Positions 27,639 through 50,149 of a DNA stretch of 64,000 nt are shown here, in pieces. A program made the position numbers and the translations under genes. This DNA comes from Umbilicaria muhlenbergii (lineage: Eukaryota > Ascomycota > Lecanoromycetes > Umbilicariales > Umbilicariaceae). Within the stretch, counting starts at the first letter, position 1. Each line of letters begins with the position of its first letter. The notes beneath the pieces were generated by a model. That model was given only the letters and a program-made list of their open reading frames with translations, was not told where the DNA came from and did not search any database. The DNA is taken from contig KK106983.1 of the NCBI GenBank assembly GCA_000611775.1, positions 2,662,808 through 2,726,807 of the forward strand. The letters are read 5' to 3'.

Positions 27639-29164
27639 ATGCCCTTCATTCTCGACTCTCCTACACCCTCAACCACCAGCTCCGACTATGACTTCGCCCC
27701 TGACTCCCTAGCTGCCAGGCGACACCTCCACCACGAAGCAGACGTTGTCGTAGTTGGGGCTGGGATCTTCGGCACCGCCATTGCCATTGCCCTCGCTCGC
27801 CAAAATCGCTCCGTCATCCTTCTCGAGAGATCCCTCAAGGAACCCGACCGCATCGTTGGCGAACTTCTACAGCCCGGTGGCGTGGAAGCCCTAGAACAAT
27901 TGGGACTGCGAGACTGTCTAGAGGGCATCGATGCAGTTGTAGTGAAGGGATACGAAGTGATCTATTATGGAGAGGAGGTGGAGATTCCGTATCCGGAGAA
28001 TGCGACGCGAAATGGAATGAGACCCGAGGGCAGAAGTTTCCATCATGGCAGGTTCATAAGGAAGTTGAGGGAGCGCGCGATGATGGAAGAGAATATTATG
28101 GTCGTGGAGACCACGGTGACCGGAACAATTAAGAATGGGTGGACAGGGCAGGTACTGGGAGTGGAGAGTGTGACCAAGGAGGAGAAGGATTACTATTTCG
28201 CGAAATTGACGATCATTGCGGACGGGTACGCGAGCAAATTTCGCAAGGAGTACATCACGCAACAGCCGGTTTCGAAATCGAAGTTCTGGGGCCTCGAGCT
28301 TGTGGATGCGGAATTGCCGCTGCCGCTGCATGGGCATGTTGTCTTGGGGGATGGTGCGCCGGTATTGCTGTATCAGATCGGAACACATGAGACTCGGTGT
28401 TTGGTCGATGTGCCGGAGGGAACGCAGAGCGCCAGCGTGGCGAACGGTGGCATCAAGGGCCATTTGAAGAATGTGGTACTACCAAGCTTGCCGAAGTGCG
28501 TGCAGAGCTCATTTGAGGCTGCGTTGGAGAATGGCAAGTTGAAGAGTATGCCAAACTCGTTCTTGCCGCCCAGTACGAATAAGGTGCCGGGAATGGTTCT
28601 TTTGGGTGACGCCATGAATATGAGACATCCGCTTACTGGCGGGGGAATGACTGTTGCCTTCAACGACGTGGTGTTGCTAAGCGATCTGCTGAGTCCGGAG
28701 AAAGTACCGGACCTTGGTGATACGAAGATGGTGATTAAGCGGATGTCGACCTTCCACTGGAAGAGGAAAAATCTGACCTCGGTTATTAATATCCTCGCGC
28801 AGGCGTTATACTCCCTCTTCGCTGCCAATGGTATGTTTCTGTCATCTCTATGGGCTTTGATGGTCGTGCTAATGAAGTTCCTCTGTAAGACCCTCAACTG
28901 AAAGCTCTTCAATTTGGCTGCTTCCGGTATTTTCAGCGCGGTGGCCAATGTGTTGACGGCCCCGTTGGTCTCCTTGCAGGTATCATACGTCAGCCTTTTG
29001 TGCTGTTCTATCACTTTTTCGCCGTCGCTCTGTTGTCGATATGGCTCTTGATTTCCGAGTCTCCGCTGTACCAAATTCCTTCAGGGCTGTTGTCGAGCAT
29101 CGGCATCTTTTGGAAGGCGTGCCTGGTGTTGTTTCCGTTTATTTTCTCTGAGTTGAAAGTGTAA
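27639..29164 (+). CDS. ERG1: Squalene monooxygenase (squalene epoxidase)
   Basis: Two exons (27639-28830 and 28890-29164) encode 488 residues, a normal length. The enzyme converts squalene to 2,3-oxidosqualene with FAD, NADPH and O2 in the endoplasmic reticulum, the first oxygen-requiring step of ergosterol synthesis and the target of allylamines such as terbinafine. Residues about 36-50 form the Rossmann dinucleotide motif VVVVGAGIFGTAIA. ERSLKEPDRIVGELLQPGG follows as the FAD-binding extension. GDAMNMRHPLTGGGMTVA near residue 325 is the second FAD motif typical of the family. Exon 2 holds CFRYFQRGGQCVDGPVGLLAG and two C-terminal hydrophobic helices (FVLFYHFFAVALLSIWLLI and FWKACLVLFPFIF) for membrane anchoring. 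The intron has GTATGT and TGTAAG ends and joins in phase 1. It is the rightmost ordinary gene before the gene-poor tract. Confidence 0.97.
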
Positions 29165-29434: not shown

Positions 29435-29907
29435 TCAAATCCTAGAGTTGCCTAGTACAGCTGGATCAATCGGGAGTATGTGCGTGGCCGGGTGCTTACA
29501 TAGACTTACCTCTGTCGTTGTTGTTACCGCTATTTGGTAGCAGACTCTCCCAGTAGGCGGTCCACTCACGAACGTACTGTGCCGCGGCTTGCTGGCTTCT
29601 TCGGGTGACGGCATACTGCGGCAATGCCGAGGTTCCAGTGGCCATATTATCGGATGCTGGGGCTGGCGACTCGTGGAGGGTCCGATATTGTGCAACCGCC
29701 ATTGCCCTGCGGTTGGCAGAAGCCTCGTCTCGTCGTGATGCTCGCGATCTTTCGAAATCTCTGGACGAGTCCGGCAATTCGACGTCTGAAGCAGATGCTG
29801 GACGTTGGGAGCAAAGAAACGCACGATAGCGGTCGACCTCCTGGAGGTGACGCAGAAGCTGGGGAGGTGGTGGAGGGTAGGACCCCGGAGGGTTATTTGC
29901 AGACAGC
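29435..29907 (-). CDS. Paralogous family copy 1 (YLxEVDxYR / WxxxW protein), first exon unresolved
   Basis: Exons visible are 29907-29510 and 29451-29435; with a five-base first exon as in copies 2 and 3 the length would be about 139 residues. The second exon opens in phase 2 after GTTGTTAG. It reads LSANNPPGSYPPPPP and then the first family motif HLQEVDRYRAFLC. After an Arg/Ser/Ala stretch comes AVAQYRTL, which is shared with copy 3. The second motif follows: LPQYAVTRRSQQAAAQYV, then REWTAYWESLL and an Asn-rich end. The canonical PPxY is altered to LPQY. The last intron (29509-29452, GTAAGT to ACTAG) adds a five-residue end; retention would end the protein at once with a similar length. The first exon was not found. 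The function is unknown. It is the nearest copy to ERG1. Confidence 0.65.
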
Positions 29908-31922
29908 CTAACAACCGAACTGAAGGTCCGTTCAGCGTTCTGGTGTTGGTGAGTAGTTACACTATAGAGCGTTGGGAATGAGCAGAGACGCCACGAAGGA
30001 TTTAGGTTGAGGAAAGTAATATAGGGGCAAGGTATAGGATGACAACCCGTGCTCGTGACTGGAATGCCGTCGACATTGGGAGGAAACTTTTAATGAGGGA
30101 TGCAAGATTTCTCAAACGGGGTTGTAGAGACAGTCTTTGGAAGGAAAGTGTTGGGGGCTTGGACGGCGAGTGGCACAGTCGTACCTCTGACGGGTGTTGG
30201 GAAGGTCGTTAGTGCTATATGTGACTGGTGTCAGCGAGCTGTCTTGGATTGACGGCAGTACAAGTAGGAAGACAGAAGAGCCCACTTCATGGTCGACCAA
30301 CGATGTCCAGACATAGACAGCCCCGGAAATGATGTACTTAATTCTAAGATAATATCGAACATGGGCAAGCTTCTTCGATGTTACACTTGTTTGGATAGAG
30401 AGTAGCCCGCCAGAGAAAGAGAGAAACGAGCTGCGGAAAGAGAGGAAAGCCGAGCTTTATCATAACGCTTCCGCAACCAGAGCCGCAATCCACCCGTTCT
30501 TTGCTGGTGGGTCGCGAACCAAATTTGATAAGGCAAATCTAGGCGACCAGTTCCTAATCCCCTAACGAGGTTGGACGATGCATGGAAGGATGACTTCGAG
30601 CATTGGCGCATTGGCGATAGAGGCGAGACGGGGGTCCGGGGAAACGGTCCCGACTCCCAAGCCAGAGTGCCGAGGCTCCAGCGTCTCCGTGCACCTGCAG
30701 GCGCAACCTCCGAGGCCATGGTTCATTGGACATGGCTCCTCGAGAGGGGTATCTCTAGGCCGCAATCCATGGTCATGGCTGACTGCAAGAGGATCAATGT
30801 AAGGGGCTGCACTTGCAGGATGTGGTGATTAATGGAATAATTGGATCCCGCCGAATGCAATATCAGGACCCGGCGAACATGGCGGGGTCAACCTTAAACG
30901 TCCCACCCGGAACTGTGATGGCTCTCTCGCACCTATGGGACAAGATGTCGTATCTGCAAGCATCACACAGACGGGCAGGAGCGACGACACCGCTCGGAAA
31001 AATATACCTTTTCTTCCATGGGAGCGCACAGACGCCCAATCTGAAAACAGCATCGCACTTCAAGCCCGCTCCCAAGATTGATCATCGCGGCGGCTGCAGC
31101 GCTGCATGACTGTCTTGTCTGGCTCGGTATACCGACAGCGCATAGCAGGAACGACGCTACGGCCAAAGTCCCGCCGCTGGGACGAGTCACGCATTGCAGG
31201 CCAGCACCCGACGACACAGCCTATGAGAATCCTCCGCCGCCGAATTGCCTCTCAAGGCAAGCCCGCGCCGCAGGCGAGGCGACGACGATCAAGCCTTAGG
31301 TAGGTTGGTGGCTGAAGTTTACGCTTCCGCTATTACACGCAGAGAGCCCCGCGTTCTTCCGCTGTTGTGGCTGCGGCGGACCGCTCCCGCTGCGGCGCCA
31401 CTTCATATGTCTCAGAGGGCTGAGACATTGACTTTAGTTCGACGACGCCGGTGCTTCACTCGTGGGCGATGCCTTGAGGTTAAAAGCTATGATATGGGCT
31501 GCAGTCTATACAATTTCTCCAGACATCGTAGCCCTGAGATCACGGGGCATATTTGCGCTGCCCATCTTCATAAGGTGGGAGGTTGGGTGTGGGTATCAAT
31601 GATTAGATGGGACACTAGTATCAAAACTATATGGTACCGTCCCGCCAGCAGAACGTCCAACAAAATTGAAGTATCAAGTTCGAGAAGTGAAATGGTTGTC
31701 CCCCCTGGGGCTGTCAACAGTAACCTTTCATTGCCGTACATGGGTTGACCAGAACCATGACGCTCCTGAGGTTCATGCTTGGGCTGTCTCTCGTCCAAGA
31801 AACCAACCTGGTGGCCTGCCAGATGCTGATGTTCGCACTCGACGATTTGTTTCGTACACATCGTACCTTTACGAGAGTCCGTTCGTTCTTTGGTGCTGCG
31901 TGTGCGCGTGCGCTCGCGGTTG
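29908..31922. other. Gene-poor tract between family copies 1 and 2
   Basis: I see no gene. Several open frames of 70-110 codons near 30380-31300 overlap on both strands with no domain. The first exon and promoter of copy 1 should lie within the first few hundred bases. Confidence 0.45.
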
Positions 31923-32719
31923 CTAGTTCCTCCTCCTCCTGCGCTCGCCATTGCTGCTTCTTCGTTCGTTGTTGCTGCTTCTGCGCCCGCTGTGTCTTTG
32001 TCTGCGTTCGTCGTTGCTGCTGCTGTCATCTCGGTCATGAGTTTGTTCTGTACGTTGCCACTGTCTCTCCCAATCGTCCCGGTATTGGAACATCTCTTGG
32101 CTCCTCATGGAGACGTCATATGGCGGTGGTCTATATGGGTCGTCGAGCATTCCGTAAGAAGCCGCTGACAGCCTGCGACTGCGACTCTCATACGGCGGCG
32201 GCGCTTGTCTGGATTGAGAGTGGGTGTAGTGGGTTGGTGTTGGGGAGTTGGTAGAATATCTGGCTGTCGAGTCTTGGTATGGAGTAGGATACTGTGGCAA
32301 CGGCCAGCGATCATCGGGAGGAGGGTACTCTGGTATCGTCGGCACTTGACCGTTGCTTCCACCGTGGCCCCTTGAAGAGGGCTGATATGGGTCAGGAATG
32401 GTCTCATATGGCGGCGCCTGAGGTCCATAACAGCTCCTGGAATAGGACGGCATCTGACTTCTAGAAGGGCTGCTAGGAGCTTGCTGGTTGAGGAAGGCTT
32501 GAAATCGGTCGTCTTCTCCGAGGTACCTTTGTAGCGTGGGGGACGTTGACGGATTAGAACGCGACGAAATCCGCGCAGGACGTGGCGGGGTTTGATTATA
32601 ACGGGAGGAGCTTGGGGTTGGGTCGGAACTGCGGTGATGACGGTTGGTGGGACTGGAGACAGGAGAGTCAGTAAGAAATCAGTAAAGGTTGGGTTCGGAA
32701 GGCAAGTAGCTCACGGCAT
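31923..32719 (-). CDS. Paralogous family copy 2 (YLxEDDRF / PPPY / W-x6-W protein)
   Basis: Exon 1 is five bases, ATGCC (32719-32715), with a GTGAGC donor. A 62-bp intron with a CTGAC branch leads to exon 2 (32652-31923). The product has 244 residues. The N-terminus is MPPTNRHHR, and the first motif is RYLGEDDRFQAFLNQQ (residues about 45-59). A Pro/Tyr/Ser-rich middle contains APPYE, PPPYES and RPPPYDV, three PPxY-type WW ligands. The second motif, VSMRSQEMFQYRDDWERQW, is followed by a tail of charged, Ser/Asn/Arg-rich repeats of the type SSNNERR. No signal peptide or membrane span is present, and the protein should be soluble and largely disordered. It shares splice phase, motif order and tail with copies 1, 3 and 5. 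The exact function is unknown. Confidence 0.75.
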
Positions 32720-35067
32720 CACCGAAGAGTAACTGCGGGGATTGGGAAGACTTGGCGCGTTCAATCGTGGAGATAGGATCGAGTGATTTCCGATGATCGA
32801 TGGCTCCCAAAGATATACTCTCTAAGCTTTAGAAAGTGGATTGGTATAGAGAAGAAACATTATGGAGGTGGCGAGAGGAGGAGGTTATATGTTGCGAGGA
32901 GGGTACGAGGACGAAGCCCCAAGGACCTCTGATCAATCGCCACTTATCAAAACCCTGAGGGCGGTTCGCCTCTTTGTAAGGCAATCATAGCCCATAGTCG
33001 ACCCTCGACGCTAGATGTCCACTCATTCGATATTTGTCCTGCCTTTTCGCCTAAACCGCAACAACCACACACATAATTGCAGCCAATCACCACGTACAGG
33101 CGCATCTGGTATACAACTTTACTCGGGAAGGATTTCATGGTAGCAGTTGATACGCGGACTGGATTTGTAAACAGAACATATTGACAATTTGACATGATAA
33201 AATTTCAGCTGCCGCTCAGGCTGAAGAGCTGAATACAGCCTCAAGAGATTCTACTGCTGCAAAAAGGTTTCGTTGTGCGGGAGGAACCGATGTACCATGC
33301 GCCTATCAACTCTATAGGCTTGCAGAGTCCACGAATGAGCACCATAAGGAGGACTTGTGCAAGAACGATAATGATCCAGCCGTTCCTGATAGGAGATTGG
33401 GCCTGGAGTACGGTCCGTCATTGCAGGCGGCCTTCCCTTTTGAGGCTTGTGGACTCGAGGCATTCGTAACTTTGATAATCTGCATGGTTCCTACATCAGC
33501 CGGGGATCTTACTACGTGTGACAATCTCTTCGACCTCGGGAATCACGGGCGTTTTCCATTCTTTGCGGGCAAATCGTCCTGCTAGCCATTGCCCCGCAGC
33601 TGACCCGCCGGGAACGGATATTTCCCCGAAGCCTCAACAGGCCAACAATGGGCCCCCAGGCCACGGTGCCCGTCCAAAACGGAAACGTTAGCCCTGGCGC
33701 CTTGGACCTTTTCGGACAATTGCTTCGAAGCAAGCATAAGCAAGCATCTTTAGCCTTTTAATTCCTCCAAGGCGCTGCCCAAAACCAGGAAAACACGAGA
33801 CACAGCCACAAACACGTTGTCGATCAGTCGGCCCAGGGCTCCAAGCACGCTGCCTTACGGAGTACCCAGACAGACGGCCCGCATAGCCTAAAAGCTTAGC
33901 GGGCCACTGCGAGCTTGGCGCTCGGCAACTAACGACCACATCGCCGAACAGCAGCACCTATGAAGCCAACGCCTGCCTCCCCATTTGCAAATCTCTCCGC
34001 GCCCTGCGTCGAGTCATTTGTGTACCGCCAGACAGCCTTGGGGATCTTCCCAAAGAGGAACCAAGGTTCAAGCGCAGAGTACCAGGACTGCAGAACCCGC
34101 ATGCAGTGTCGGTCTTGTGATGCCGCATATGACGACACTGGCTGCAAATCGTATCACGAATCACGTTGGGGAAGTGCCTTCCAGCGTCTGGCCTGAAACG
34201 CCAGGAATCCTCAGGATTACGCGCTTTCTTCACTTCCCAAGTCAGCTTTTTCCAGCTCCGTCCCCGCAGGTTCGTGTCCGGGCACGGACGATCCAGCCTT
34301 GCGGCACGACATCTCTCGTGGTTCAGCCTCGTAGGATCCAATGAAAGCCTGGCGAGTAGGAAATAGCGGACATAGCCCCGAGGCCTAATAGTCCTTATCC
34401 ACTACGTTTACTTCCACTTTCTTTCGCATTATCTTCATGTTTCAATTGCGACGTTGCGATGTGCCCATGCTATCGTACCCTGATGTTTGATTTCCAAAGC
34501 TACGTCTGCGATTTTCCAGCAACTCGTCGCATTGTGTGGTAGTTCAGCCTAATGGAGATTTTTGATGCAAGCCAGCTGAGTCCCTTACTTCTTGCTTGAT
34601 TGATTATGGTCATGTTGTCTCCCTTCAAAGGTCACTAACAGGAAGCCTCGCTGCCTCCTAGTACACACATGCGGCTTGGTGACAGGATCACGTCGGCATC
34701 TCGTGTTAAATCATCGGAAGATTTTATAACTGCAAAACCTATTACACAAGCTGTCTACCGGATGCCATTGTCGCGCTGGAATCCCAACAAGGATCAAAGC
34801 AGGCCTAGTCGTTAGGCGCCCACGGAACCCCCTCGTGTCTTCAACGCCGTGGCCATGTGGTTGCAGTGTACAGTTGGAAACCCACCAGGGGCCCGACCCA
34901 GATAGGGGTTTCCCACCACATCCAGACAATTGCAATGTCGCAATAGTGACAAACGTGGACACACAGCATAGCCAAGCAATTCAGATACTGGGGTCTCCTA
35001 AGCCAGAGCTGTTAGCATGGGCACTACATCGGCACGGGCACTACCGCACGCACTTAGACTCCACATT
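32720..35067. other. Gene-poor tract between family copies 2 and 3
   Basis: The first few hundred bases should be the promoter of copy 2. An open frame of 127 codons at 33958-34341 (minus) overlaps others on the plus strand and resembles nothing. No gene, repeat or RNA was recognised. Confidence 0.45.
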
Positions 35068-36166
35068 CTACTCGCCTCGACCGTCGCCACTGTCGTTGCT
35101 GCTGCCCCGCTCCATCCGGTCCCAATTCACGGACCAGTCATGGACATGCTGCGCCATGGCCTGGCTCCTAGCAGCGACTTCATACGGTGGTGGCCCCTGA
35201 CTTCCATCCAGGATCCCATCCTCTATCATTGCCATCGGGTTGTGACGGCTTGTCGCTACCATATGAGGTGGACACACGTTGCCATAGCGTGCTGGGGTTT
35301 GGGACTGAGCAGGGGCCCCATGGACATCATAATGCGTTGAGGCTTGGGCGCTGTTATGGCCACCATGGCGAGATGGGCGGTGGTGCGGATGTCCAGGGAC
35401 ATTGTACTGTGGCGATGCTTCGCTGCTGTTCCAACCATCGCACCGAGTTGGCCTGTGGTGCGGATGTCCGCGAACATTGTACTGTGGCGATGCTTCGCTG
35501 CTGTTCCAACCATCACACCGAGTTGGCCTGTGGTGCGGATGTCCGGGAACATTGTACTGTGGCGATGCTTCGCCGCTGTTCCAATCATCAGACCGTAATG
35601 GCTTGTGGTCTGGAGCTGAGCGGCCATACCACGGCGCTATCAGGCTCTCATCGAGTGTCCCGTACTGTGCCAGCGCCAGCGCACGGCTGTCGCAATGAAG
35701 ATTCTCCGGCTGGTCTTGATGTGCATACGAGCTGCCATTGTGTAATGCTGTGTGGCCGGTACGGTTCCCCTGAGGCCCTTGACAGAGGAGCGCACGATAC
35801 GAGTCGGTCTCTTCGAGGTAGGCCAAGACCTGCTGGGAATGGTCCCTTTCGCGACGTCGAGGACTGTAGCTCGAGGGCAAGGAGCTAGAAACCGTGGCGC
35901 AATCGGAACCCAACTGGGGACGACTGGTTGCACTGTGTAGCATACACGGTCAGCGCCGACCAGGTGGAAGGAGGTGTGAAGAGTATCAGATGTGGTTATC
36001 CACTAGCGATGAATAATGCGGAAAGAGGATGGGCAGAGGGAATAGTGACGAGTACTTTTGATTGTTTTGAGGAGTTTTACTGTTACTGGAATACAAAGTT
36101 GGGGTCAGCAACTGTGTAGGGGACAAACGACAACCTCGAACCCGCCGAGGGGAGGGCTTACGGCAT
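35068..36166 (-). CDS. Paralogous family copy 3, with expanded internal 25-residue repeats
   Basis: Exon 1 is ATGCC (36166-36162) with donor GTAAGC, as in copy 2. A 229-bp intron with a GCTGACC branch ends ACACAG, and exon 2 is 35932-35068. The product has 289 residues. It begins MPATSRPQLG, and the first motif AYLEETDSYRALLC covers about residues 39-52. A segment ALALAQYGTLDES is shared with copy 1. The middle consists of about four units, three of them near-identical, with the core WNSSEASPQYNV and a His/Pro-rich linker. The C-terminus has GPPPYEVAARSQAMAQ, then HDWSVNWDRMERGSSND. One canonical PPxY is present. An alternative start at 35943 (ATG inside the intron end) would replace the first two residues by a few others. 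The large plus-strand frame over the repeats (35187-35888) is a shadow. Confidence 0.75.
35377..35601. repeat. 75-bp in-frame tandem repeat inside family copy 3
   Basis: Three consecutive 75-bp units (35377-35451, 35452-35526, 35527-35601) differ by only a few bases and each encodes 25 residues. A more diverged fourth unit extends toward 35340. The near-identity shows recent expansion by slippage or unequal exchange while keeping the reading frame. Confidence 0.92.
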
Positions 36167-37247
36167 AGCTTAGGAGCGATTAGCGAGGTAGGTTACAACT
36201 CGGACGGTATCACGACTTTGCAAGACGGATGGTATCAACCGATGCTTTGATCTTTGTTGGGTGTTTATCTCAGGAAGAATGGTTTTCATATTTCAAGGAG
36301 GATGCTGGATGCGGGAGAGCCGACCTTAGACAAGAACCCTCGCTTCATTCCCACGTATCCGTCCCATCTCGAATTACCCAGCCGGCCTGCTCGACCTTGG
36401 GTTTTGTTACAGCTCTCGGTAATGTAAACGGGCAGAAACGAAGCTAAATCAAGTCACACTACTATTAACGTGCGAAAGGTCTTGCGATCCTTGTCGTAGA
36501 ATTTAAAACGATTGTCAGGGCCTGCATTCGTATTGTTCGATTAAACAAAGGTTATAGTGTATGAGTGATGGCAGCTGTCAAACGTGCCATGCCGCCATGC
36601 CCCATGCAACAAATGCCGCCATGTCGCCCTGCCGCCATTTCGGCCATTTCAGCAGAGAGGCTATGCCTGCTAGTGGAAAATGCTGAGGACAAAGACCACG
36701 CAGGATGTACTAACTTCGTCCCAGCTGCTTCGATTGCAGGCGGTCGACTGTTCCCCCACTAGATCTGATTGGTTTCTGTCGCTCGACCACCCGGTAAGCT
36801 GTGATGGCAGGTGCTGGTTCGGTCCGCAAAAGCACCCCAGGTCGTAATCTAGTGTTAGGCACAACCATGGTAAGGCAACCACGCTCTATATCCCTTGCAC
36901 TTGCCTTCCTCCGCTGATATCCTATGTCAAAGGATTGATTTAAGGATTGTTGACGACAAGGCTAAAAGGTTAAGTTGCCTGAATAACATTAACGAGGAAG
37001 CCCGCACGGTTACGACAGCAAGGCTAAAACAAATCGGTTGCCTGAAAGTACCACACATTCAATTGTTGCCAACGCACGCTCCCCCGAGCCGAACTGGTGG
37101 CAATTCGAGTCTGTGGTGGTTCACATGACTACATAGACAGCAAGAGAGTAGTGGCAAGGTAGTGACAGCATTTTACACCGCCAGATGCAGCATCTTGATC
37201 TCTATCATTGGATGCTGAATTGAATAAAAACCTTGAGTGTCGCAAGT

Positions 37248-37279
37248 CCCCAGAGCCCCAGAGCCCCAGAGCCCCAGAG
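37248..37279. repeat. 8-bp tandem repeat CCCCAGAG, four units
   Basis: Four exact units of CCCCAGAG in a row lie in non-coding sequence. This is a simple short satellite with no visible function. Confidence 0.92.
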
Positions 37280-39590
37280 CCCCAATGCATCAAACACCTA
37301 CGCCCGAAGCGTTCCTTCAGAAGGTGGGAGATCATCGCTCTAAGAACGCAGTCCCAGATAGCTCCTGCATTCTACACAAGAGAGAAGCGTGAAAAGGCGG
37401 TCAGTGTATACAAGGTAATTAAGTTGCAAACAATGTTCCTTAGGTCGAGAGACGGCGACGAAGGCGGCGCAGTGAGGCCAATAGAAGACTTGAGCAACCC
37501 AGCATACGGCGAATTACCTCGGAATTGCCTAGGCTAATTCATATAGGCACATGGACAGAATTCACCAGTTTCAAGGTTGAAGTGGGTGCTATAGCTATGA
37601 GCACAGTGACATGAGATTAACCTTCACAAGCATGACCCTTGAGGAACTCCTCTGTAAGCCGTGCATTTGCCTGCAGCAGTGCAATCAAGCAAGGTCCCAA
37701 GAGCCCATGCGCTTCTGCCGGCTCGGCGTTCTACCCCTGCGCTTATCACGGATCGGAACCCTAAGTGTTCCCAAGAGAAACTCCAACCAATTACCAAGTA
37801 ACAACACAGCAGCGTACCAACATTTATTACAGATCCTCATTGTCACCTGCCGCGCCTATTGGGCGGATGTGTGAGTATCAAAGCACACCTGCCGTGATTT
37901 CGGGAGCACAGCTCCGGAGTCCGCAACTTCATTGGAAGGCAGCCGCCGGACTACCATGAATGCCGCACGTCTACTGGATGATTCCGGGTGGCGAGCTTAA
38001 AGGGCGGCGAAACGAGGCTGCGGTACCTACGTGGAACACACATGCATGGTCACGTCATGCCTCAAGAAGATGTCAGAAAGGCAAGGCTGATGCATAGTCA
38101 CAGGCCTCGGTTTCGCTACCGACATGGAATGTTTGCCACGAGATAATGGAGACTATCAGGCCAATATATGAGGGGGACAAAGATGCATGCTTGATGTTCC
38201 TGGCCACTCTTCCCTGATACGCCGACCGTAGGATCTTGATGACTCAATGATCTTCGGTATCTGATACGTGCGTGAAATACGGCTTCCCGGAGAAAATGGG
38301 GTCGCATGCAGTTCGTGAGCACAGACGCCTTGAGCGGAAACTTGATCAAGAGGATTCGCTGCACGGTTTTCGGCTGCGGAATGCATTTGTTGGAAGTCAA
38401 TATTCTGGTGTTATGACTGAGTAGCGTTGCCGACGTTGAATAATCAGATCCTCTCAACATGCCGCGTTGCCATTGATGCATAGTTCATAGACGGCTCCTT
38501 GGCATTGGCCGTGGCAATTCCCAACCATGGTTCTTTTCAAAAATGGCTTGTCATCATGAATGGCCGCTGATAGTTTAATCGTTCAGTATAGGCCAGTAAA
38601 ATATCTGGAAGATGATCGTGACTCTTCATCTGCGCGGGAGTGTTGACGTGTTCTTTCAGTGGTGTTTAATGAGGTCTCTCAGCAAAAGGATGGAACTTAG
38701 TGATAGTTTGAAGCTTCAAATATAGACTAATAGTCAGTTTTGTGTTTCAAAATGCTCATGACCATATGTAGCATAGTCTGTTGTTGTTTCAAGAAGCAAT
38801 ATAAAAAGGGGAGACATTCCTCTCTTAAAAGCGTCACGATAACATAAATATGCTTTCGAATCATGACGAAGATAAATGGACAACCTCGACTGCTCAACAG
38901 TTATTTAATTTTAGGGAAGATCGGAGATATATTTACAAGAGAGATGAAATTTTTGTCTTCAACGCGCCGGGAAGTGAATAATAAAAAGGCAAACAAATCG
39001 AATGAAAGAAGGTGTGATATCAGTAGAGAATGAATGAGATCTAAGACATCTTAAGACAGGTACACCATTGATATAAGTGATAGTCTTCAAGTAAGACCAG
39101 CTTGGGAATCCCCGGCAGCAAACGTTGGCGCAATTAGTTTACATCAGGAATTTTAGGGACGTCAGATTACCCTAAGGTCAGATCCTCAGTTAAATCTGAT
39201 CATGCGCCTGATGCTCGTGTTTATGGTGACTTCCAAAGACTGAAACTGTTGCAGTAATTGCCTACGGCATAGTTCTGGGTTGTGTAACATATGCTCTTGG
39301 TTATCCATACAAGGATGGTTAAGCATTGATAGCAGACAATTCGTAGCCTTGACCGTAATTTCTTCTGGAGCTGATGTCGGAAGTGTGTAATAAGTAGTGA
39401 GGAGCTGAGATACCAATAGAAGATACCATGGTTCGAAGTATAGACGAAAGCTTGCACATGATTGAGTGACTCAGAGCTTGACGGCACATATACTCCAGGA
39501 AAGAATGTATACCGTGATGCCACATTCTCGCAGGCATCAAGTACGTAATGGGCTCGTCAACGCATGTTTGCGACCGGATACACTGGAGCG

Positions 39591-39708
39591 AAAAAGAAGT
39601 CGTGTTGCTCATGTAGTAAAGTCCTTCGCAGGGTTCGCAAAGGGATGCTGTGAAGCCAAAAAGAAGTCATGTTGCTCATGCACCTCATGTAGCAGAGTCC
39701 TATGCAGG
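39591..39708. repeat. Imperfect direct duplication of about 45 bp
   Basis: The segments 39591-39632 and 39658-39708 both begin AAAAAGAAGTC and share TGTTGCTCATG and AGAGTCC/AAAGTCC followed by GCAGG. The second copy has an extra short insert. This is a local duplication in non-coding DNA. Confidence 0.8.
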
Positions 39709-42700
39709 ACTGTAAGACTTTTTCACAATTTATCAGTTGGTACGCCCAGCCCGGTATGTTGGCAGTGCTCTCTCCTCAGGAGTGAGAGAAAATTTGCTTC
39801 GTTCTGGCGTCTACGAAACTTGGTTCGGACATGATCATTCCCGCATGTTTAGAAAACTTCCATATCCCTAGTCTCTCGTTGCAGGAGCATCTCGGCGAGA
39901 AAGGTTTGTGAGAGATCCATTATCCTTGCAGATAGTTCGTAAGCCATACCGAAGATCTCAGGAGCAGACATTCAAAGTTTGAAGGGTAGAGTTTGTCGGC
40001 TTCGAGGAGAACGATTGGCAATGTGTTAAAAAATGATGCCTTGCACTGTAGCCAGTTGGCAATTGGAATTAAATCTCAAGTAACAAGGCTGAAGAAGACG
40101 CCACCAAGGGAGAACGTGAACCTCGCTTCTTGTGTTGGTTGATCGTGGGTGTGCAATGAAAGGTCGCAAGTAATCGTGGGCTGACTGACGCTGCAAGCAG
40201 CATAGGTGGGGTACAAGGCGTAAGATGTTTTGTCACGATTCCGGAGGCCCGGAACAGCTTGAGATAGAGCACCGATCGCGAGATGAGCACAATGGGCATG
40301 GACGAACCACAAGCGGCGCAAGTTGGTAGCGTGCATCATTGTATGTTGATTTCTAGAGTTGTGTGACTCTATCGGCTCTCGGTGATCGGTATGACCAGGC
40401 AGGGTTCGACATCATGTCATTCCTGCGATGAGATTAGCAAGTGAAACAAGGCGTTGTCAAGTGTAGAAATCGTATCATGATCTCTGTCACCTCCCCAGAA
40501 TGTGGGCATCGCATCGCCAGCATTCGCAAGATGCGGATACGCCGACTACTTTTATGGGATGAAAGCGGGGTTGGCAGCTGTGCCGGCTTCCCTGGCAGTT
40601 TAGCTCTTCCTCCCTTCGCTTCTTCTTCCAATTGGTGCCTGATGGCGTAAGGTAACGCCCACTGTTCGTTTGGACGGAGTTGTGACGGCTCGTGCATGTG
40701 CTGGCGCTAAACGCATGCTTTTCGGGGACTCCACGCGGTTTGCAGTTGTCATTGCGGTGGGACGGCACGTCCGAACAACCTAATGGATTCACTTTTCCTC
40801 GCGGCCAAATCCGGGAAGAGCCTCAACAACGGAGGAAGATTATGAGTAAGCTTGTCGAGCGAGGAACAAGCTGCTACGTCTCTTGGGACTGTTTCGAAAT
40901 CCTTTCGACCTGGATAGTGGAACGAACTTCGAAAGTCTTAACATTCCAATGCCCGTGTACTTCCCGTGTATGTTGTGAGCTACGTCTGCGATGAATCTTA
41001 ATCAACACTGTCGATGGTCTGTATAGAAAGAAGATGAGACGCTTTGTCCATTACTAGGTACTTTCAGCATTCGACAACGTGCCCAGCAGCAAATCAAACT
41101 TTACCCTCGCTGCTTTGCATCATACGTAAAATTTAGCAATACGTGGGAGCGAGATCGGTTACAAGGCAACGCCGATCTCCCTGATGTCAGTGGGCACATA
41201 TGCCCGTTGGGATGCGTTGGAAGCCGCTAAAAGCGCTGCGTCTGCAGGGTTTCAACTACATCTGTGGTAGGACAAAGGTCGCTTCACGAAGAAGCCAATT
41301 CGTCTCCGGCATGTCAAGACTGTTGCGTATTGTGAAGATGGGTCTGATCATCAGATCATGAGTCTAAAGGACTCGCCGATGATGGTGTAGTAGCAGACAA
41401 AAGAGGAATACTGCTTCATCGTCCAACCGATGCGGCAACGCCGACAGTCAACAATGCAACACCCGCCAGATGGCCGTGCATAAAGTGTTCATGAGTGGGA
41501 TGCGACAAAGCCCACACGTTCGCCCAAGGAATTGATGATTCGTATCGACCACACTGACCAGTAGTTCGTCTATAACCGCTAGGATCTGCTACTTTGCCGG
41601 GATTGCGTATCAAGATCTCGAGATTTGTATCAGGCCATTGGGCAATTTTCTGTGGGCCTCTGGGATAAGTAGTACCGGGGTAGTTGACCTGGCTAGTAAT
41701 CGTCAAGATTGCATGGATATGGGCCACATCTGATGAGACCATACCAAGGGACCAGTCCCAAGAGGAAGTCGCAAGGCTATACAACGTGGTGTGTGTCGCG
41801 TCAGTGCGTGCCCACCAACAGGCGCTCGGTGCCTCGAGCTCGATCTGGCTGCAGGAGTGGCCCTTCCTTCCGAGACCGTTGCCTACCAGCGTTATGGGAC
41901 CATGACAGTCAGAGCATTTGATACGTCGAGCCATAGGCCTGCACAACATTTCGTATCACTGTTGCTCAAATCAGGTACCCACGTCCGTTATTAATCTTCA
42001 CCGCGTATCGGCAAGATTGAGCTTCGGACAGCCACTGGTAGGAGGTCCCGCAGGTAGGGATACCTGTATCATCCTGCCACCTACAACAGAACGTGTCTGC
42101 TGATGCCATACTGGACAACAGTTTATTGATCCGGTTCAAGGCGGCTAGTACAATCAACAAGCGTACACTTGGAATCATGTGAAACATGTGCTCGTACTTA
42201 CTTCAGCAGATATAAAATGCTTGTTATGTCCGTTCTGGTGTTCTCGTCGTCTATTCTAGAGTTAACTCAACACTCACGTGAACACTAGTATCAGCGAAGA
42301 TTCAGCCTACCCGATTCCTGAGAGACCCATCCCTCAAAAGCACGTGTATTTGTTACCTGGTCTCTTTTGCCCAATATGCAGTGAGTCGCTTCCTATATGT
42401 TTTAGCTATCAGCCTCTACCACATTGAAGTCGCTGCTGATACGTGTACCTTTGCAGGGATTCTAAAGAGAACCAGGACGAAAGGTATCCTTCTTTTTCGT
42501 TCAGGCACTCCAACATGCACAAGCCTCAACGCCATCCATGGCAAAGAGCAAGCGAGATAGTTCGAGTTCTTCGAAATGAGACCTTTATTGATGCTCGTCT
42601 TACCAGCAGTGGCATCATCAATGTCGCTTCCCATCTCAAGTATGTTTTCCTATGCTCCGACATCTTGTTTTCTCACTCGTCCATCGCTGATCACGCTGTG

Positions 42701-42724
42701 CTCTAAGTGCCCACAACAGACTGA

Positions 42725-43020
42725 ATGCCAGCCATAGGTAAGCATTGCTAGCTTACCTTTCACATGAACTCATAGCGATCAAAGCCAGTGCTGACTCTTC
42801 TTGCAGCGCCACCAACCATGCTGGTCACTCCCAACCTGCTTTGCAGACTCCCCTGGCTGATCGTTCGGCTAATGATCCTCATCCTCCTCACATCGCTGCG
42901 TACCTTCAAGAGGTCGATCAATACCGGGCCTTCCTCTGTCTTCCACCCTCGGATGTTCCGTCTAGGGGTCAGACGGCGACTGTACACAACGAACAGCACA
43001 GAGAGCGAGGGAAACTCTAG
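42725..43020 (+). pseudogene. Paralogous family copy 4, truncated and probably inactive
   Basis: A splice acceptor after a GCTGAC branch (exon from 42807) opens with C GCC ACC AAC, matching the phase-2 exon start of copies 2, 3 and 5. The frame reads SATNHAGHSQPA, RSANDPHPPHI and the first motif AAYLQEVDQYRAFLC, the closest match to copy 1. The protein then stops about 29 residues later at 43020, and no C-terminal PPxY or Trp motif follows in any nearby frame. The likely first exon (42725-42737, ATGCCAGCCATAG, donor GTAAGC) is eight bases longer than the ATGCC of copies 2 and 3, so it joins out of frame with the motif. The copy is therefore either a relic or uses another start that I did not find. 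Confidence 0.6.
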
Positions 43021-46000
43021 GAGCAGGTCGTGAGATGTGGATATGGCAATAGTCCAGCTGTTTAGGACTTTGTACCTTTCCTTATTCATCTCTTTGAAGA
43101 AAGTCTCGTGCGAATTGGACAAGCCGACGGCTGCGCATTGAGTACCACGCTGGCTATCGTCCCGCCAAGCGGTAGCTCTATACTTCACGTTCTATACTAC
43201 CTGAGCGACGCGGTCTGACTTGACAGCACACATGACTCTAACAGGAAACCTGGAGAGACCCCACTCTTGCATTTAATGTGAGATTATTTAGTCCGACCTG
43301 TTCAAAGGGGAATGACACCTAAGTAGTTATCTTCCTGCAAGTGATCTAAACTGACTGCTCTGACCTTGGGTCCCCATGACTTCACCGGCAATCTCCCTCT
43401 ATTCCCTACACTCGAGTGACCGAGTCAGGCCTTTCCATAGTCAGCTCTACGGCATAACAAATTTCCCGAAAGGACAGAACACGCTTGTTCCTCATGACTT
43501 GGAAAACAATATGCTAGCTACGATAAGACTAATGAAGCTGCGTGTTGAGTGATGTAGGGTTCGATGCATAGCGCGTACGACGCTACAGTATCTGCAGTGG
43601 GCATCAGTGGGCCAGCATTTGTTCTCCAGGCAGCATGTCACGAAAAGGTAAGAAGTAGTCAAAATCCAGAAGATTCTAAAAGAAAAAGAACGAACGCAGA
43701 AAAGCATCGCAGACAGCGCATCGATTGCACCGGATTAGATCAAGTAAATCATTATGCTCACAGCGTGATGGAAGTCTCGTTACTGAACCCTATGGAGACA
43801 TATCCAGGTCCGCTTGAAGGATTCGGGAAGTGTGATTATAGCAATTTTGCGGCTTTAATTGCCACGGTGTTGGAGATAAAAGATTGCTCCGCGATGGCCG
43901 GCCGGCCAATGACCGTCACCGAACCGATGACTAAGATATCAGTAGCCGCACCAGTACGCTTCAAGTGGAACCCCACATCTACCGGAAGAAGTTCTTTCAC
44001 ACTCGACTTTCTATCGAAATCTGAATCTCTGTCCATCAACAATGCATCCTGAACATAATGTAACTGTCTTGAGCACGTGGGGAATGTATGACATGCAGCT
44101 ATTGTCCTGTGCGCGCTTGGAACGCAGTGACTGCTCAACGATCTGCTAGAGTTGGGCAGACTCTTTCCGTTTCTTCTCTACGGTCAACCTGGGCTAAATC
44201 TCATCGAATGCCCTCGAGCTGGGATTGGTCACAATCAACCCACTAGAATCAAGCGAGGCCCACTTTGTTATACACAGCAGTCAGCTTATGTGCTGGCGCG
44301 GCGCAGCCGTGGGGGCAAGTATGAATCTTCCAATTTCTACTCAATCCCTTCCCGGCTACCTTCCCTTGAGCATGATTTACCAGCAAAAGCTTCTTACATT
44401 TCCCTGCGTTGTTTTCATGGAAGCCTTCCATTTTTAGCAAGATGTCGAAACCGGACCTGACTTGTGTTTACGCCTCGATTGGGACCTCCTCTACCGAAAA
44501 GGAGGGCGTGCTAAAGCTGTGCAAGTATTCAACAGCTGCTGGTGGCGCCGGAATCCACAGGGTCCCTAGGTAGCCTTTTGTGTCGCAACATTCTGGGAAC
44601 ATAATCGTGTCAGCACAACCTCGCAAGCCTAATTCGCCAGGTATTGGAAGTGGTGGATGCAGATATGCGATGAAAAAGCCATCCTCAAACCAACAACCTA
44701 CCATGGCCACTAAGCAATCTATGCTGCCGCACACAGGAGGCGACAACATTCCAAATACTCCGGAGCTATAGGATGAACTTCGTCGCGTATAGGTAGGCCA
44801 TGTTGAGGCACTCCTAAGGCGGTGGGAGGCTATGCTTGGCCTTGTCGTAGTTTCCTTGCTGGCGGCTGCTTCCGGGCAAGATGAGCCCTAACCAGCTGTC
44901 GATGGTTTGACAGGTACTCCCAAGGGTCGGACCAAGAATACTGTACATGATTTGAACACGGCAATCGATGGGCAGAGGGCTTGAGACATGGATATGGTAT
45001 GGCGACCACGCACACTGCGGCCGAGAAGATCCCGGCTATTGGCCAGGCGTGTGGCATATCCTTGATAAAACACCATTGCGGTGGATTGTCTACCCTCCAA
45101 CCTCAGCGCAGGGGACGGGATTATCCTTGGCGCCAGGGACGCCGCGCAAATGGAAAGAACTATTGCGTGATCTCGCAAGGATCCTTGCCGGAATAGCTGG
45201 TGAAGGAGTCGGATTTTGTGTGGGGGTTGGTCAAACGGGAAGTCGCATCCCAGGCGCCATTTTTTGAACAACATTTGCTCCGTCATTAGTGGTTCTTAGG
45301 GACATAAGTCACATATCGCCCACATCCTGCAAACAACTCGCGTGGCAGATGCACATTTTTGTAATGGAGTCGTCAAGAGCAAATCGCAAGGGATAATGCG
45401 GGCGGATATAGGTTCTTGGGAGTAAGCGAAGCCACTTCATGGAACAGCGTTTCCTGACCTCACGAAGACTCGTGATCAAAAATTAGGCTATGTGCGCTGT
45501 GCGCGCTTTGCGCGCTTTGTGTATGCAGCATGGGCAATGAGACCTTTGGGCTGCCTTATCCCCCAACTGCGCAGGACGGACGAAAGGAGCAAATGCTTCA
45601 CATACCGCTTGACCCCCGCCGTTCTACGCCGTTCCAAGTCAATAATCCAGGGCCTCATGACAATCTCGCAGAAGCGGTAGGCGCTTTCCAAAGTATTGAG
45701 CTCTAACACCAATCCAACATCAACAACACTGTCTTCGATGATGGGAAGATGCAACATGTGGAGGACGTTCTAGGACGCTGCTGCAAACACCCCACCTTTC
45801 AACCCATGCTATCTGACATGATAGATCTGCGGGTATAGAGCACTGGCGCTGGCGAGTTAACCGTCAAGGCTTCGTCCGTCGCGGTTGGTAAAAGCCAGTC
45901 CCGCACCTCGTGGCAGCCACACACGGCCGCGTAATTGTGTAGCGGGAGTTTTTGTTGCTGGCGAGGCACACTTGCCAATAGATCGCAGCATCTGCTAGTG

Positions 46001-46453
46001 GCAGTGCATGCCCTAGCTTGGCCTCGACCGTTCGGTTGTGACTTGTGACGGTTGTGGCTAATGGTCAGGTTGTACACAATCTAGCCAAGGCCGAAGTAAT
46101 GGACGCCGTTGCGGAGCCCATTGGTTCTCCACTCACTCTTCCATAGTGTGACATCCCTTGTCGTCGAACCGCATCCAGGTTTAAGACCTTCGGTGTTGCG
46201 CTCATTTCGAGTATGCATTGAAGTTCCCATCATGCCCTCCGCGCATGAAAATGTATGTTGCAGGACGCAATCAGACCCAATTGGCTTATGCTCGGTGGAG
46301 ATCTCAGAACATGGCCTATATACGCAAGTCCGAGGAGCCTTCAGACTTGTGCTGCGTTCTTTTGCAACCTGCTCTTCGAGTAATTTTGGCAATTCTGCAC
46401 TATTCAAGCACGGTGAACTTACAAAACTTTGACACTGTATAAGCTCGTCCATG
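43021..46453. other. Gene-poor tract between family copies 4 and 5
   Basis: No gene is supported. Open frames at 43564-44052 (plus, 162 codons), 44468-44749 (minus), 44888-45286 (minus) and 45488-45757 (minus) start with plausible codons but match nothing I recognise and overlap opposite-strand frames. A GGCCGGCCGGCC palindrome lies near 43897-43908. Confidence 0.4.
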
Positions 46454-46878
46454 ATGTCGTCAGTAGCCAGCTGTCTTCTTGTCTCCTTCCACCCGCATCC
46501 TCGCCATCGTCTACCACTTACTCTTTACTTACTTGCCACCTAGGAACATTAGCAACTCGATTCACAACCTTAATAGAAGGTAATCTCTTTCATCAACTCG
46601 ACCCGCGACTCCCAAGATGGCTGATTGTCATCACAACCTTGGAATACTCTTCCTCGTCTTCATCATCGTTGGTATTCTTGCTAATCCATAGTCCCACTTG
46701 CAGAACCTCCAGCAACGTGGGCCAGTCACCGTCCAGCATGTATGCTCACCCCTTTTTGTCACATAGCCTTGCCCGATTCATGCTGGACTGCTCGTCAAGA
46801 TGGGAAATGACGGACCGGCCTCCCTTGTTTCCTTGCCGTTACCTTGAGCAATTTCGCCGACTGACTGCTCGCTCCCAG

Positions 46879-47515
46879 CGCCGAAGAATCCCACCACAAT
46901 GGAGATTCAAGCTCTTCCGGCGATCCTGCATACTCACACCCCTCCTCCCAACTTTCACAATACTCTCAAGAAGTTGACCCTTATCGTTCCTTCCTTTGCC
47001 GGCCGCATCGGTCACCATGGAGCATGCACGTTACCCACGCGATACCGCAGAACGGCACCTCCCTGGCATCTCAAGGAACAGCTCCGACGCATGGGACCGG
47101 CACCCGAAAGGCGATGACCCAGTATCCATCATCCAGCACGCTCCCATTGGCAGCACGAAATGAGAGCCAGGCCAATAGACAGACTGCTACTAGCTACAGC
47201 GGCCAGGAAAGCGACCAGTCAACGGCACGTTGCGATGAAGTGGACTACATTTCAGAACCACCGCAGTTCATGGTTACTGTCAGGAGCCTATCCGTAGCGC
47301 AGTATGTTCAGGCTTGGGACTCAACTTGGGAACAGATGGAAGATCAAACGAGCAGCACCAGCAGCAGTATCAGCAGCAGGAGCATCAGCAGGAGCAACAG
47401 CAACAGCAGTAACAGCAGCAGGAGCAATGGTGATAGAGGCCGAGACCGAAACCATATCAGCGGCAGCAATGGTAACCGAACAGATACTAATCGGCAGTCT
47501 TCTGTCACCGGGTGA
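46879..47515 (+). CDS. Paralogous family copy 5 (exon 2; first exon unresolved)
   Basis: The exon begins at 46879 after a CTGACTG branch and TCCCAG acceptor. It starts in phase 2 with C GCC GAA, like copies 2-4, and with a five-base first exon it would give 213 residues. The first motif is QYSQEVDPYRSFLCRP (about residues 29-44). The middle is Ser/Thr/Gln-rich. The second motif reads EPPQFMVTVRSLSVAQYV then QAWDSTWEQMEDQ, in which the PPxY tyrosine is replaced by Phe. The tail is a run of Ser and Asn encoded by AGC/AAC triplets, ending in Arg/Asn-rich sequence. A candidate first exon, ATGTC at 46454-46458 with donor GTCAGT, would need a 420-bp intron and is weak. The function is unknown. Confidence 0.65.
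47345..47430. repeat. AGC/AAC trinucleotide-type repeat coding the Ser/Asn tail of copy 5
   Basis: The stretch is built of AGC, AAC and AGG triplets (for example AGCAGCAGGAGCATCAGCAG) in frame with family copy 5. It is a coding microsatellite and should vary in length between strains. The opposite strand shows a meaningless Leu run. Confidence 0.85.
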
Positions 47516-49200: not shown

Positions 49201-50149
49201 CTATCGCTGCGTTGTGGCGTTAGTCTGGTGTTGATCCATGGCTTTCGCCGCTCCGCAATCGCCTTCGCCAAAGGTGGTGAGAGCGTATCTCTGTGTGCTC
49301 TGAGAAAAGCCTATCATAAAGCTTCAGCTATGGGGCGTATCGAACATAGAAGGTGACTCAACTTACTCCTCGATGTTCAACACATTGAGGGAATTGAAAA
49401 TAGGGGTCAAGCTGCAATTCTAGAGCGGCCACAGCGGCTTCCATCTCGTGGCGCAATCTCTGAACGTCTTCGAAAGTCAGAGCTTGCCCGGTGAACCTGT
49501 AAATTACTTGTGTGCCTGGTATCCAATTGATCTTCGCCCCCCGCCTATAAAGGCCCTCAAAAAAGTGCCCTAAGATCTCTGGACCGAGGAAGTAGGCGAC
49601 TATGGGATCGTCATAGTCATGGGAGAGTGTTTTTGCTGAGGGAAAAAGCCGACTCGATGTATACATCGTGATTTCTCTCGCCTCTTTCGGAAGTTTCGGT
49701 AGAGCAAAAGTCCAGTGGTACATACGAAGAATGAGAAGTTGGATTTCTCCGCTTATGCCCCTTACATCTCCTGGATTAACATCGTCCCATTCTTCTTCTT
49801 GGTGGACATCGTTTTTGGCGAGCGCCGTCCGTTGATGATGTAAATTCGTATGATCCCCATAGAGGACAATCCTAAGATCTCTGACTGTGGCTAGATTAGC
49901 CGCGCCTATTTGAGTACAGAAGTCTTCCAGACGCGATGGCAAGCGGAAAACGAAGGTATTCTTATGATAAAGGAGGTAGACGGCTTCGGTGTAGATCCTT
50001 TTGCACGTAAGAAGGACTTTAGTAGATAAGCTCTTCATTGACCTTGACGAATCGGCCATATACGGTTCGACCACATGCTCGGTGACCACTAGGTGACCCA
50101 GAATTTCCGCGCGAATTTCTAATGGGAGGTTTAGTAGATGTCGCCCCAT
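49201..50149 (-). CDS. F-box-like fungal protein (short Leu-Pro-x-Glu-Ile-Arg domain)
   Basis: Two exons (50149-49367 and 49299-49201) encode about 293 residues. The N-terminal MGRHLLNLPLEIRAEILGHL matches the degenerate F-box-like start seen in large families of fungal proteins. It is followed by LLTCKRIYTEAVYLLYHKNTF, the usual Cys-Lys/Arg-x-Ile/Leu-x-x-Glu-Ala block. The remaining 200 residues include helical and strand segments but no domain I can name. If exon 1 is not spliced, the frame stops two codons after the donor GTAAGT; the intron (TAGCTGAAG branch, TTTTCTCAG acceptor) adds 32 residues in phase 0. Such proteins may be substrate receptors of SCF ligases, but many lack experimental support. 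Confidence 0.82.

What the first reader, a model, noticed from the sequence alone, without database searches (positions are those of the whole stretch)
29435..47515. Undescribed paralogous family of two-motif disordered proteins confined to a gene-poor tract
Five units between 29.4 and 47.5 kb share the same order: an MP[AP]T-like start, a first motif Y-L-x-E-x-D-x-[YF]-[RQ]-[AS]-[FL]-L-[CN], a low-complexity middle, and a second motif with P-P-x-[YF], R-S, A-Q and two Trp residues spaced W-x3-W or W-x4-W, ending in a Ser/Asn/Arg-rich tail. I do not recognise this combination. All other parts of the tract appear empty, so the family is its main content. This pattern suggests lineage-specific gene birth and spread, possibly linked to ecology or cell-cycle/ubiquitin control.
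Basis: partly seen in the sequence, partly recalled or inferred. Interest (0 to 1): 0.85.

Follow-up and report, generated by a model that had tools for sequence, protein, structure and literature searches.

The report
Scattered fungal small-protein gene family
The five look-alike genes in this fungal window are real, but they belong to a larger, unnamed family of short genes spread over the genome, several of which end in a tiny separate exon that spells what looks like a peroxisome address tag.

Summary
"Confined to a gene-poor tract" is wrong: I count at least 17 copies at six places on four contigs, 12 of them outside the window. Pfam and PDB give no match below E 0.04.

The genes share a layout. 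A five-base coding first exon (ATGNN) and a phase-2 intron fit 14 of 17 copies (shuffles: mean 1.4, maximum 7). Exon 2 carries motif 1 (YLxExDxYxAFLC) and motif 2 (Y-x3-W-x3-W). A tiny third exon ends [KR][LI]-stop in 7 of 8 copies with a strong phase-1 donor (shuffles: mean 0.18, maximum 3); 6 of 8 fit [ASPHC][KR][LI], a fungal peroxisomal PTS1 motif.

My best reading: an old duplicated family of short, probably disordered proteins, the common form sent to peroxisomes by a splice-dependent PTS1. The window cluster is a derived branch with a long insert and an [LP]Px[YF] block; most of it lost the third exon. Localisation is inferred; lineage restriction could not be tested.

The parts
29435..29919 (-). 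Copy w1: main exon to 29510 (5' end uncertain, about 29919; open frame runs 29499-30089), motif 1 about 29849-29811, motif 2 about 29600-29550, phase-1 donor GTAAGT at 29509, tiny last exon 29451-29435 giving the ending ..GNSRI-stop. First exon not resolved.
31923..32719 (-). Copy w2: five-base first exon ATGCC (32719-32715), phase-2 intron of 62 nt, main exon 32652-31923 (MPPT start, both motifs, two PPPY), Ser/Asn/Arg tail; no conserved third exon found.
35068..36166 (-). Copy w3: five-base first exon ATGCC (36166-36162), phase-2 intron of 229 nt, main exon 35932-35068 (MPAT start, both motifs, one PPPY, 75-nt tandem repeats in the middle).
42808..43020 (+). Copy w4: open frame with motif 1 only (42901 on), ending ERGKL-stop; no motif 2; no five-base first exon found upstream. 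Possibly truncated or decayed.
46865..47515 (+). Copy w5: open frame with motif 1 (about 46958-46999), motif 2 (47258-47329, PPQF) and Ser/Asn/Arg repeat tail; first exon not resolved.

Best explanation
This is an old, duplicated family of short, probably disordered proteins (at least 17 copies at six places in this genome). The common form is about 80-120 residues. Exon 1 gives only M plus two bases. Exon 2 gives a Pro/Ser/Asn-rich leader and two short conserved motifs, perhaps two helices. A mini-exon 3 adds a C-terminal [SP][KR][LI]. Inferred step: this tripeptide is a PTS1, so the spliced product is carried by Pex5 into peroxisomes, while retention of intron 2 would give a cytosolic form. 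Inferred step: the two motifs mediate self-association or binding to a peroxisomal partner. The window copies are a derived branch in which a long low-complexity insert and an [LP]Px[YF] block arose and the third exon was mostly lost. Shown: the family, its dispersal, and the exon layout and C-terminal ending as statistical patterns. Not shown: transcription, splicing, localisation, structure.
For: Profile tests. Genome searches giving 17 copies. ATGNN|GT with a phase-2 joint in 14 of 17, shuffles mean 1.4, max 7 in 500. Endings [KR][LI]-stop in 7 of the 8 copies with a strong phase-1 donor, shuffles mean 0.18, max 3 in 400: PKL, PRL, KKL, SKI, SRL, SKL, SRI. In the other phases the same test gave 1 of 2 (phase 0) and 0 of 2 (phase 2) copies. 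Fit to [ASPHC][KR][LI] in 6 of 8, shuffles mean 0.03, max 1 in 300; with any GT donor in any phase 7 of 17 copies, shuffles mean 0.25, max 3. A Histoplasma study reports that motif for Pex5-dependent proteins, shows PKL to be sufficient and PRL partial, and cites SKI in an Ogataea catalase (PMC13343957, passages seen). Protein-level constraint: in six motif-1 columns of 16 copies, mean identity is 0.74, 0.80 and 0.52 at codon positions 1, 2 and 3.
Against: Two copies, C3:4316 and C3:4318, read EKKL and GKPKL but run on without a stop, so the motif is not always terminal. No such ending was found for six copies: C1:393, C1:396, C2:1744, w2, w3, w5. KKL (C2:1740) and GKL (w4) fall outside the motif; strict [SAC][KRH][LMI] is met in only 4 of 8. 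The exon and ending patterns were noticed in some copies before being tested on all. No RNA evidence. AlphaFold on the five window copies is of low confidence (mean pLDDT 47.9; 6 of 136 residues at 70 or more), so helices are a guess.
Confidence: 0.45

Rival explanations
1. Same family, but the conserved basic-Leu/Ile ending is not a PTS1. It is a C-terminal binding element or simply the conserved end of the protein, which acts in cytosol or nucleus.
For: C3:4316 and C3:4318 keep E/G-K-x-K-L with residues following. KKL and GKL endings fit PTS1 poorly. No peroxisomal enzyme domain is attached.
Against: 6 of 8 strong-donor copies fit a measured fungal PTS1 motif, shuffles mean 0.03. The residue at -3 varies among S, P and K while K/R then L/I is kept, as expected for PTS1.
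Confidence: 0.35
2. The window cluster works as Rsp5/NEDD4-type ubiquitin-ligase adaptors or substrates through [LP]PxY motifs.
For: A block [LP]-P-x-[YF]-x-V-x-x-R-S precedes motif 2 in 4 of 4 window copies that have motif 2; PPPY in w2 (two) and w3 (one), LPQY in w1.
Against: [LP]Px[YF] is in 0 of 12 copies outside the window, w5 has F instead of Y, and PPxY is easy to reach in Pro-rich sequence. That PPxY binds WW domains is recalled, not tested here.
Confidence: 0.12
3. The copies are decaying pseudogenes or mobile-element remnants scattered in gene-poor DNA.
For: w4 lacks motif 2 and a joinable start; C4:491 lacks motif 2; C2:1740 lacks a recognisable motif 1; two copies run past the usual stop.
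Against: Frames, splice positions and motifs are kept across copies with mean core identity of 29% (between places) to 35% (within places). DNA similarity between copies lies within the genes; the only other matches are the overlap of two fetched loci and local repeats (flanks of 7 of the 12 outside copies are under 1 kb). No Rfam match in the window at the gathering score, no inverted repeats of 30 nt or more in the tract.
Confidence: 0.08

Closest known systems
Fungal PTS1 proteins, including those whose PTS1 arises by alternative splicing or stop readthrough
   Same: C-terminal [SP][KR][LI] on 6 of 8 strong-donor copies, carried by its own last exon, so that splicing decides whether the tag is present.
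   Different: Reported readthrough cases are metabolic enzymes (PMC4207609, seen as title and start of abstract in a search listing; the splicing cases are recalled). These are short proteins without a known domain.
PEX20 and the PEX5 N-terminal region (WxxxF/Y motifs)
   Same: Short diaromatic motif; an acidic residue before the second W in 9 of 15 motif-2 copies (0 of 4 in the window).
   Different: W-x3-W rather than W-x3-F/Y; no shared N-terminal Cys; many duplicated copies. PEX20 features from passages of PMC8172628.
Rsp5/NEDD4 adaptors with PPxY (recalled)
   Same: PPPY in w2 and w3.
   Different: Only in the window branch; no Pfam domain found.

Membership tests
PTS1 peroxisomal matrix protein | C-terminal tripeptide of the type [ASPHC][KR][LI] in fungi | tested here: inconclusive
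   6 of 8 copies with a strong phase-1 donor; 7 of 17 copies with any donor; 4 copies end KKL or GKL or run on; gene models unconfirmed
PTS1 peroxisomal matrix protein | Pex5-dependent import | not testable with these tools
   needs microscopy or fractionation
PEX20 co-receptor | WxxxF/Y motif | tested here: not met
   W-x3-W in 15 of 15 copies that have motif 2; W-x3-F/Y in 1 of 17 (C4:496, WDKMF)
PEX20 co-receptor | conserved N-terminal Cys | tested here: not met
   a Cys in the first 25 residues in 3 of 17 predicted proteins, at different places (three of the 17 lack a resolved start)
PEX20 co-receptor | Pex7-binding domain | not tested
   no profile for it was used
Rsp5/NEDD4 PPxY client | [LP]PxY | tested here: inconclusive
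   3 of 5 window copies, 0 of 12 outside
Any Pfam family | match above the curated cut-off | tested here: not met
   17 of 17 members scanned; best E 0.049 (PETase, one member)
Secreted effector | N-terminal signal peptide | not tested
   by eye the predicted N-termini are hydrophilic; no predictor was run

The most novel reading that the evidence does not exclude
A previously unnamed, expanded fungal family of disordered micro-proteins whose peroxisomal address is encoded in its own last mini-exon. Splicing would then switch each such paralogue between cytosol and peroxisome, and one cluster has traded this tag for a long insert bearing a PPxY block.
Probability: 0.35. Interest if true: 0.72.

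Novelty: new variant of a known kind. Interest (0 to 1): 0.52.

Why it matters
Short genes with tiny coding first and last exons are what automatic gene finders tend to miss (general knowledge), so such families could be common and invisible. If the endings work as PTS1, peroxisomes of this fungus import a set of micro-proteins without a known enzyme domain, which would raise a testable question about what they do there.

Tried and rejected
Confinement to the tract: rejected (12 of 17 copies elsewhere). Known domain: Pfam and PDB give nothing convincing; the PETase/polyester-hydrolase match (Pfam E 0.049 in one member, PDB E 0.12 over 22 profile positions) was not followed. Relatives in other collections: genome contigs and viral contigs with one copy (C2:1744) as query, none; these are collections of prokaryote and virus sequence, so this is no evidence on spread among fungi. 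Structure: AlphaFold on the five window copies was too poor to use, so no fold search was run. Clade test: tree of 17 cores unresolved, 0 of 14 inner branches starred, labels of the six places no more clustered on it than shuffled ones (as low in 82 of 200); mean pairwise identity 0.35 within places against 0.29 between, 0 of 2000 permutations as large. Literature: the string YRAFLC is in 0 papers of the library; some searches asked about PTS1 variants, WxxxF/Pex20, short first exons and family expansion and were read as listings only; passages of PMC13343957 and PMC8172628 were read. No copy of the 17 was dropped from the exon counts; C2:1740 has no motif 1, so its anchor there was a stretch just before motif 2, and it was left out of the codon count. 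Other pattern matches were judged chance from their context or, for some rows and most of the 61 rows, not inspected beyond the matched letters.

Full report
Motif 1 is recognisable in all five with small departures in w1 and w5; motif 2 is clear in four and missing in w4.

Searches of the same genome with single copies and with degenerate DNA patterns found 12 further copies: C1 near 380.8, 382.6, 393.6, 396.4 and 8171.6 kb, C2 near 1740.7 and 1744.4 kb, C3 near 4316.2 and 4318.5 kb, and C4 near 487.4, 491.1 and 496.4 kb. With the five in the window that is 17, at six places on four contigs; the count is a lower bound. A profile from the 12 outside copies finds exactly the five window units, E 1.1e-8 to 4.6e-12, next best 0.49. 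In 50 shuffled windows the best score is 11.0 bits against 31.7-42.5. Because five of the 12 had been found through window-derived queries or patterns, I repeated the test with the other seven; all five units are found again, E 9.6e-8 or better, next best 0.33.

The genes share a layout. In 14 of 17 copies an ATG plus two bases is followed at once by GT, and a phase-2 acceptor joins it to a frame that is open up to motif 1 (up to just before motif 2 in C2:1740, which has no motif 1). Shuffled upstream sequences give a mean of 1.4 and at most 7 of 17 in 500 trials. Downstream of motif 2, eight copies have a strong donor (GT[AG]A[GT]) in phase 1 before the stop. In seven of them an acceptor 40-110 nt on leads to a mini-exon of at most 12 residues ending [KR][LI]-stop (mean 0.18, at most 3 in 400 shuffles). 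The eighth is w5. In the other phases the test gave 1 of 2 and 0 of 2 copies. The seven endings are GKPKL, WKPRL, EIKEKKL (or EKKL), VKSKI, AKPSRL, ETSKL and GNSRI.

These endings resemble the type 1 peroxisomal signal. A Histoplasma study (PMC13343957, passages seen) gives [ASPHC][KR][LI] for Pex5-dependent proteins, finds PKL sufficient, PRL only partly efficient, and cites SKI in an Ogataea catalase. Six of the eight strong-donor copies fit (shuffles mean 0.03, at most 1 in 300). Against this, C3:4318 reads GKPKL and then runs on, C3:4316 reads EKKL and runs on, C2:1740 ends KKL, w4 ends GKL unspliced, and six copies (C1:393, C1:396, C2:1744, w2, w3, w5) show no such ending. C1:8171 ends VPKL if unspliced, or QKPRL with a weak donor. 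I therefore rate peroxisomal targeting of the common form as about as likely as not.

The window branch differs from the rest. In the 10 outside copies that have both motifs, these are about 10-20 residues apart. In w1, w2, w3 and w5 they are separated by a long low-complexity stretch, and a block [LP]-P-x-[YF]-x-V-x-x-R-S stands before motif 2. [LP]Px[YF] is in 4 of 5 window copies and in 0 of 12 outside. A-Q' part corresponds to the R-x-Q-A-M of several other copies. The third exon with such an ending was found only in w1 among the window copies.

Copies look old. The core tree is unresolved, although copies at one place are a little more alike than copies at different places (0.35 against 0.29, 0 of 2000 permutations as large). 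DNA similarity between copies lies within the genes, with no shared flanks seen, but the flanks compared are short for seven of the 12 outside copies. Codon positions 1 and 2 are more conserved than position 3 in motif 1 of 16 copies (0.74, 0.80, 0.52). These speak for protein-level constraint and against recent mobile spread.

No known family fits: Pfam, 17 of 17 members scanned, best E 0.049 in one member; PDB best E 0.12. AlphaFold on the window copies is of low confidence. No fungal genome besides this one is held here, so whether the family is young or lineage-specific stays open.

After the checking round I mended these points: motif 2 is W-x3-W in 15 of 15 copies (not 14), four copies rather than three end KKL or GKL or run on, the codon count rests on 16 copies, and two typing slips are told. 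None changes the odds.

Noticed in passing
35324-35623: Tandem repeat of about four 75-nt units inside copy w3 (75-82% alike over 150 nt), encoding a repeated unit of the type CDGWNSSEASPQYNVPGHPHHRPTR.
   Followed up: partly
47350-47426: CAG-rich repeat in the Ser tail of copy w5, read in the Ser frame.
   Followed up: no
27639-28898: A squalene epoxidase gene (PF08491, E 6.6e-78) borders the tract on the left; a DUF7730 gene (49361-50149, E 1e-11) borders it on the right.
   Followed up: no
L081, L023, L082, L085, L062 (first introns): The string CTAACCCTAA, like telomere-type repeat units, stands near the branch-point position of the predicted first intron in five copies outside the window; it may be chance around a CTAAC branch site.
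   Followed up: no
L031 (G000 C1:4683330-4683428): Unrelated tandem repeat encoding SQHGAIWCNCW units, caught by the W-x3-W pattern.
   Followed up: no
L063 (G000 C3:4317000-4321000), positions 2832-2961: Short tandem repeats beside copy C3:4318 (44-53 nt, 79-89% alike).
   Followed up: no
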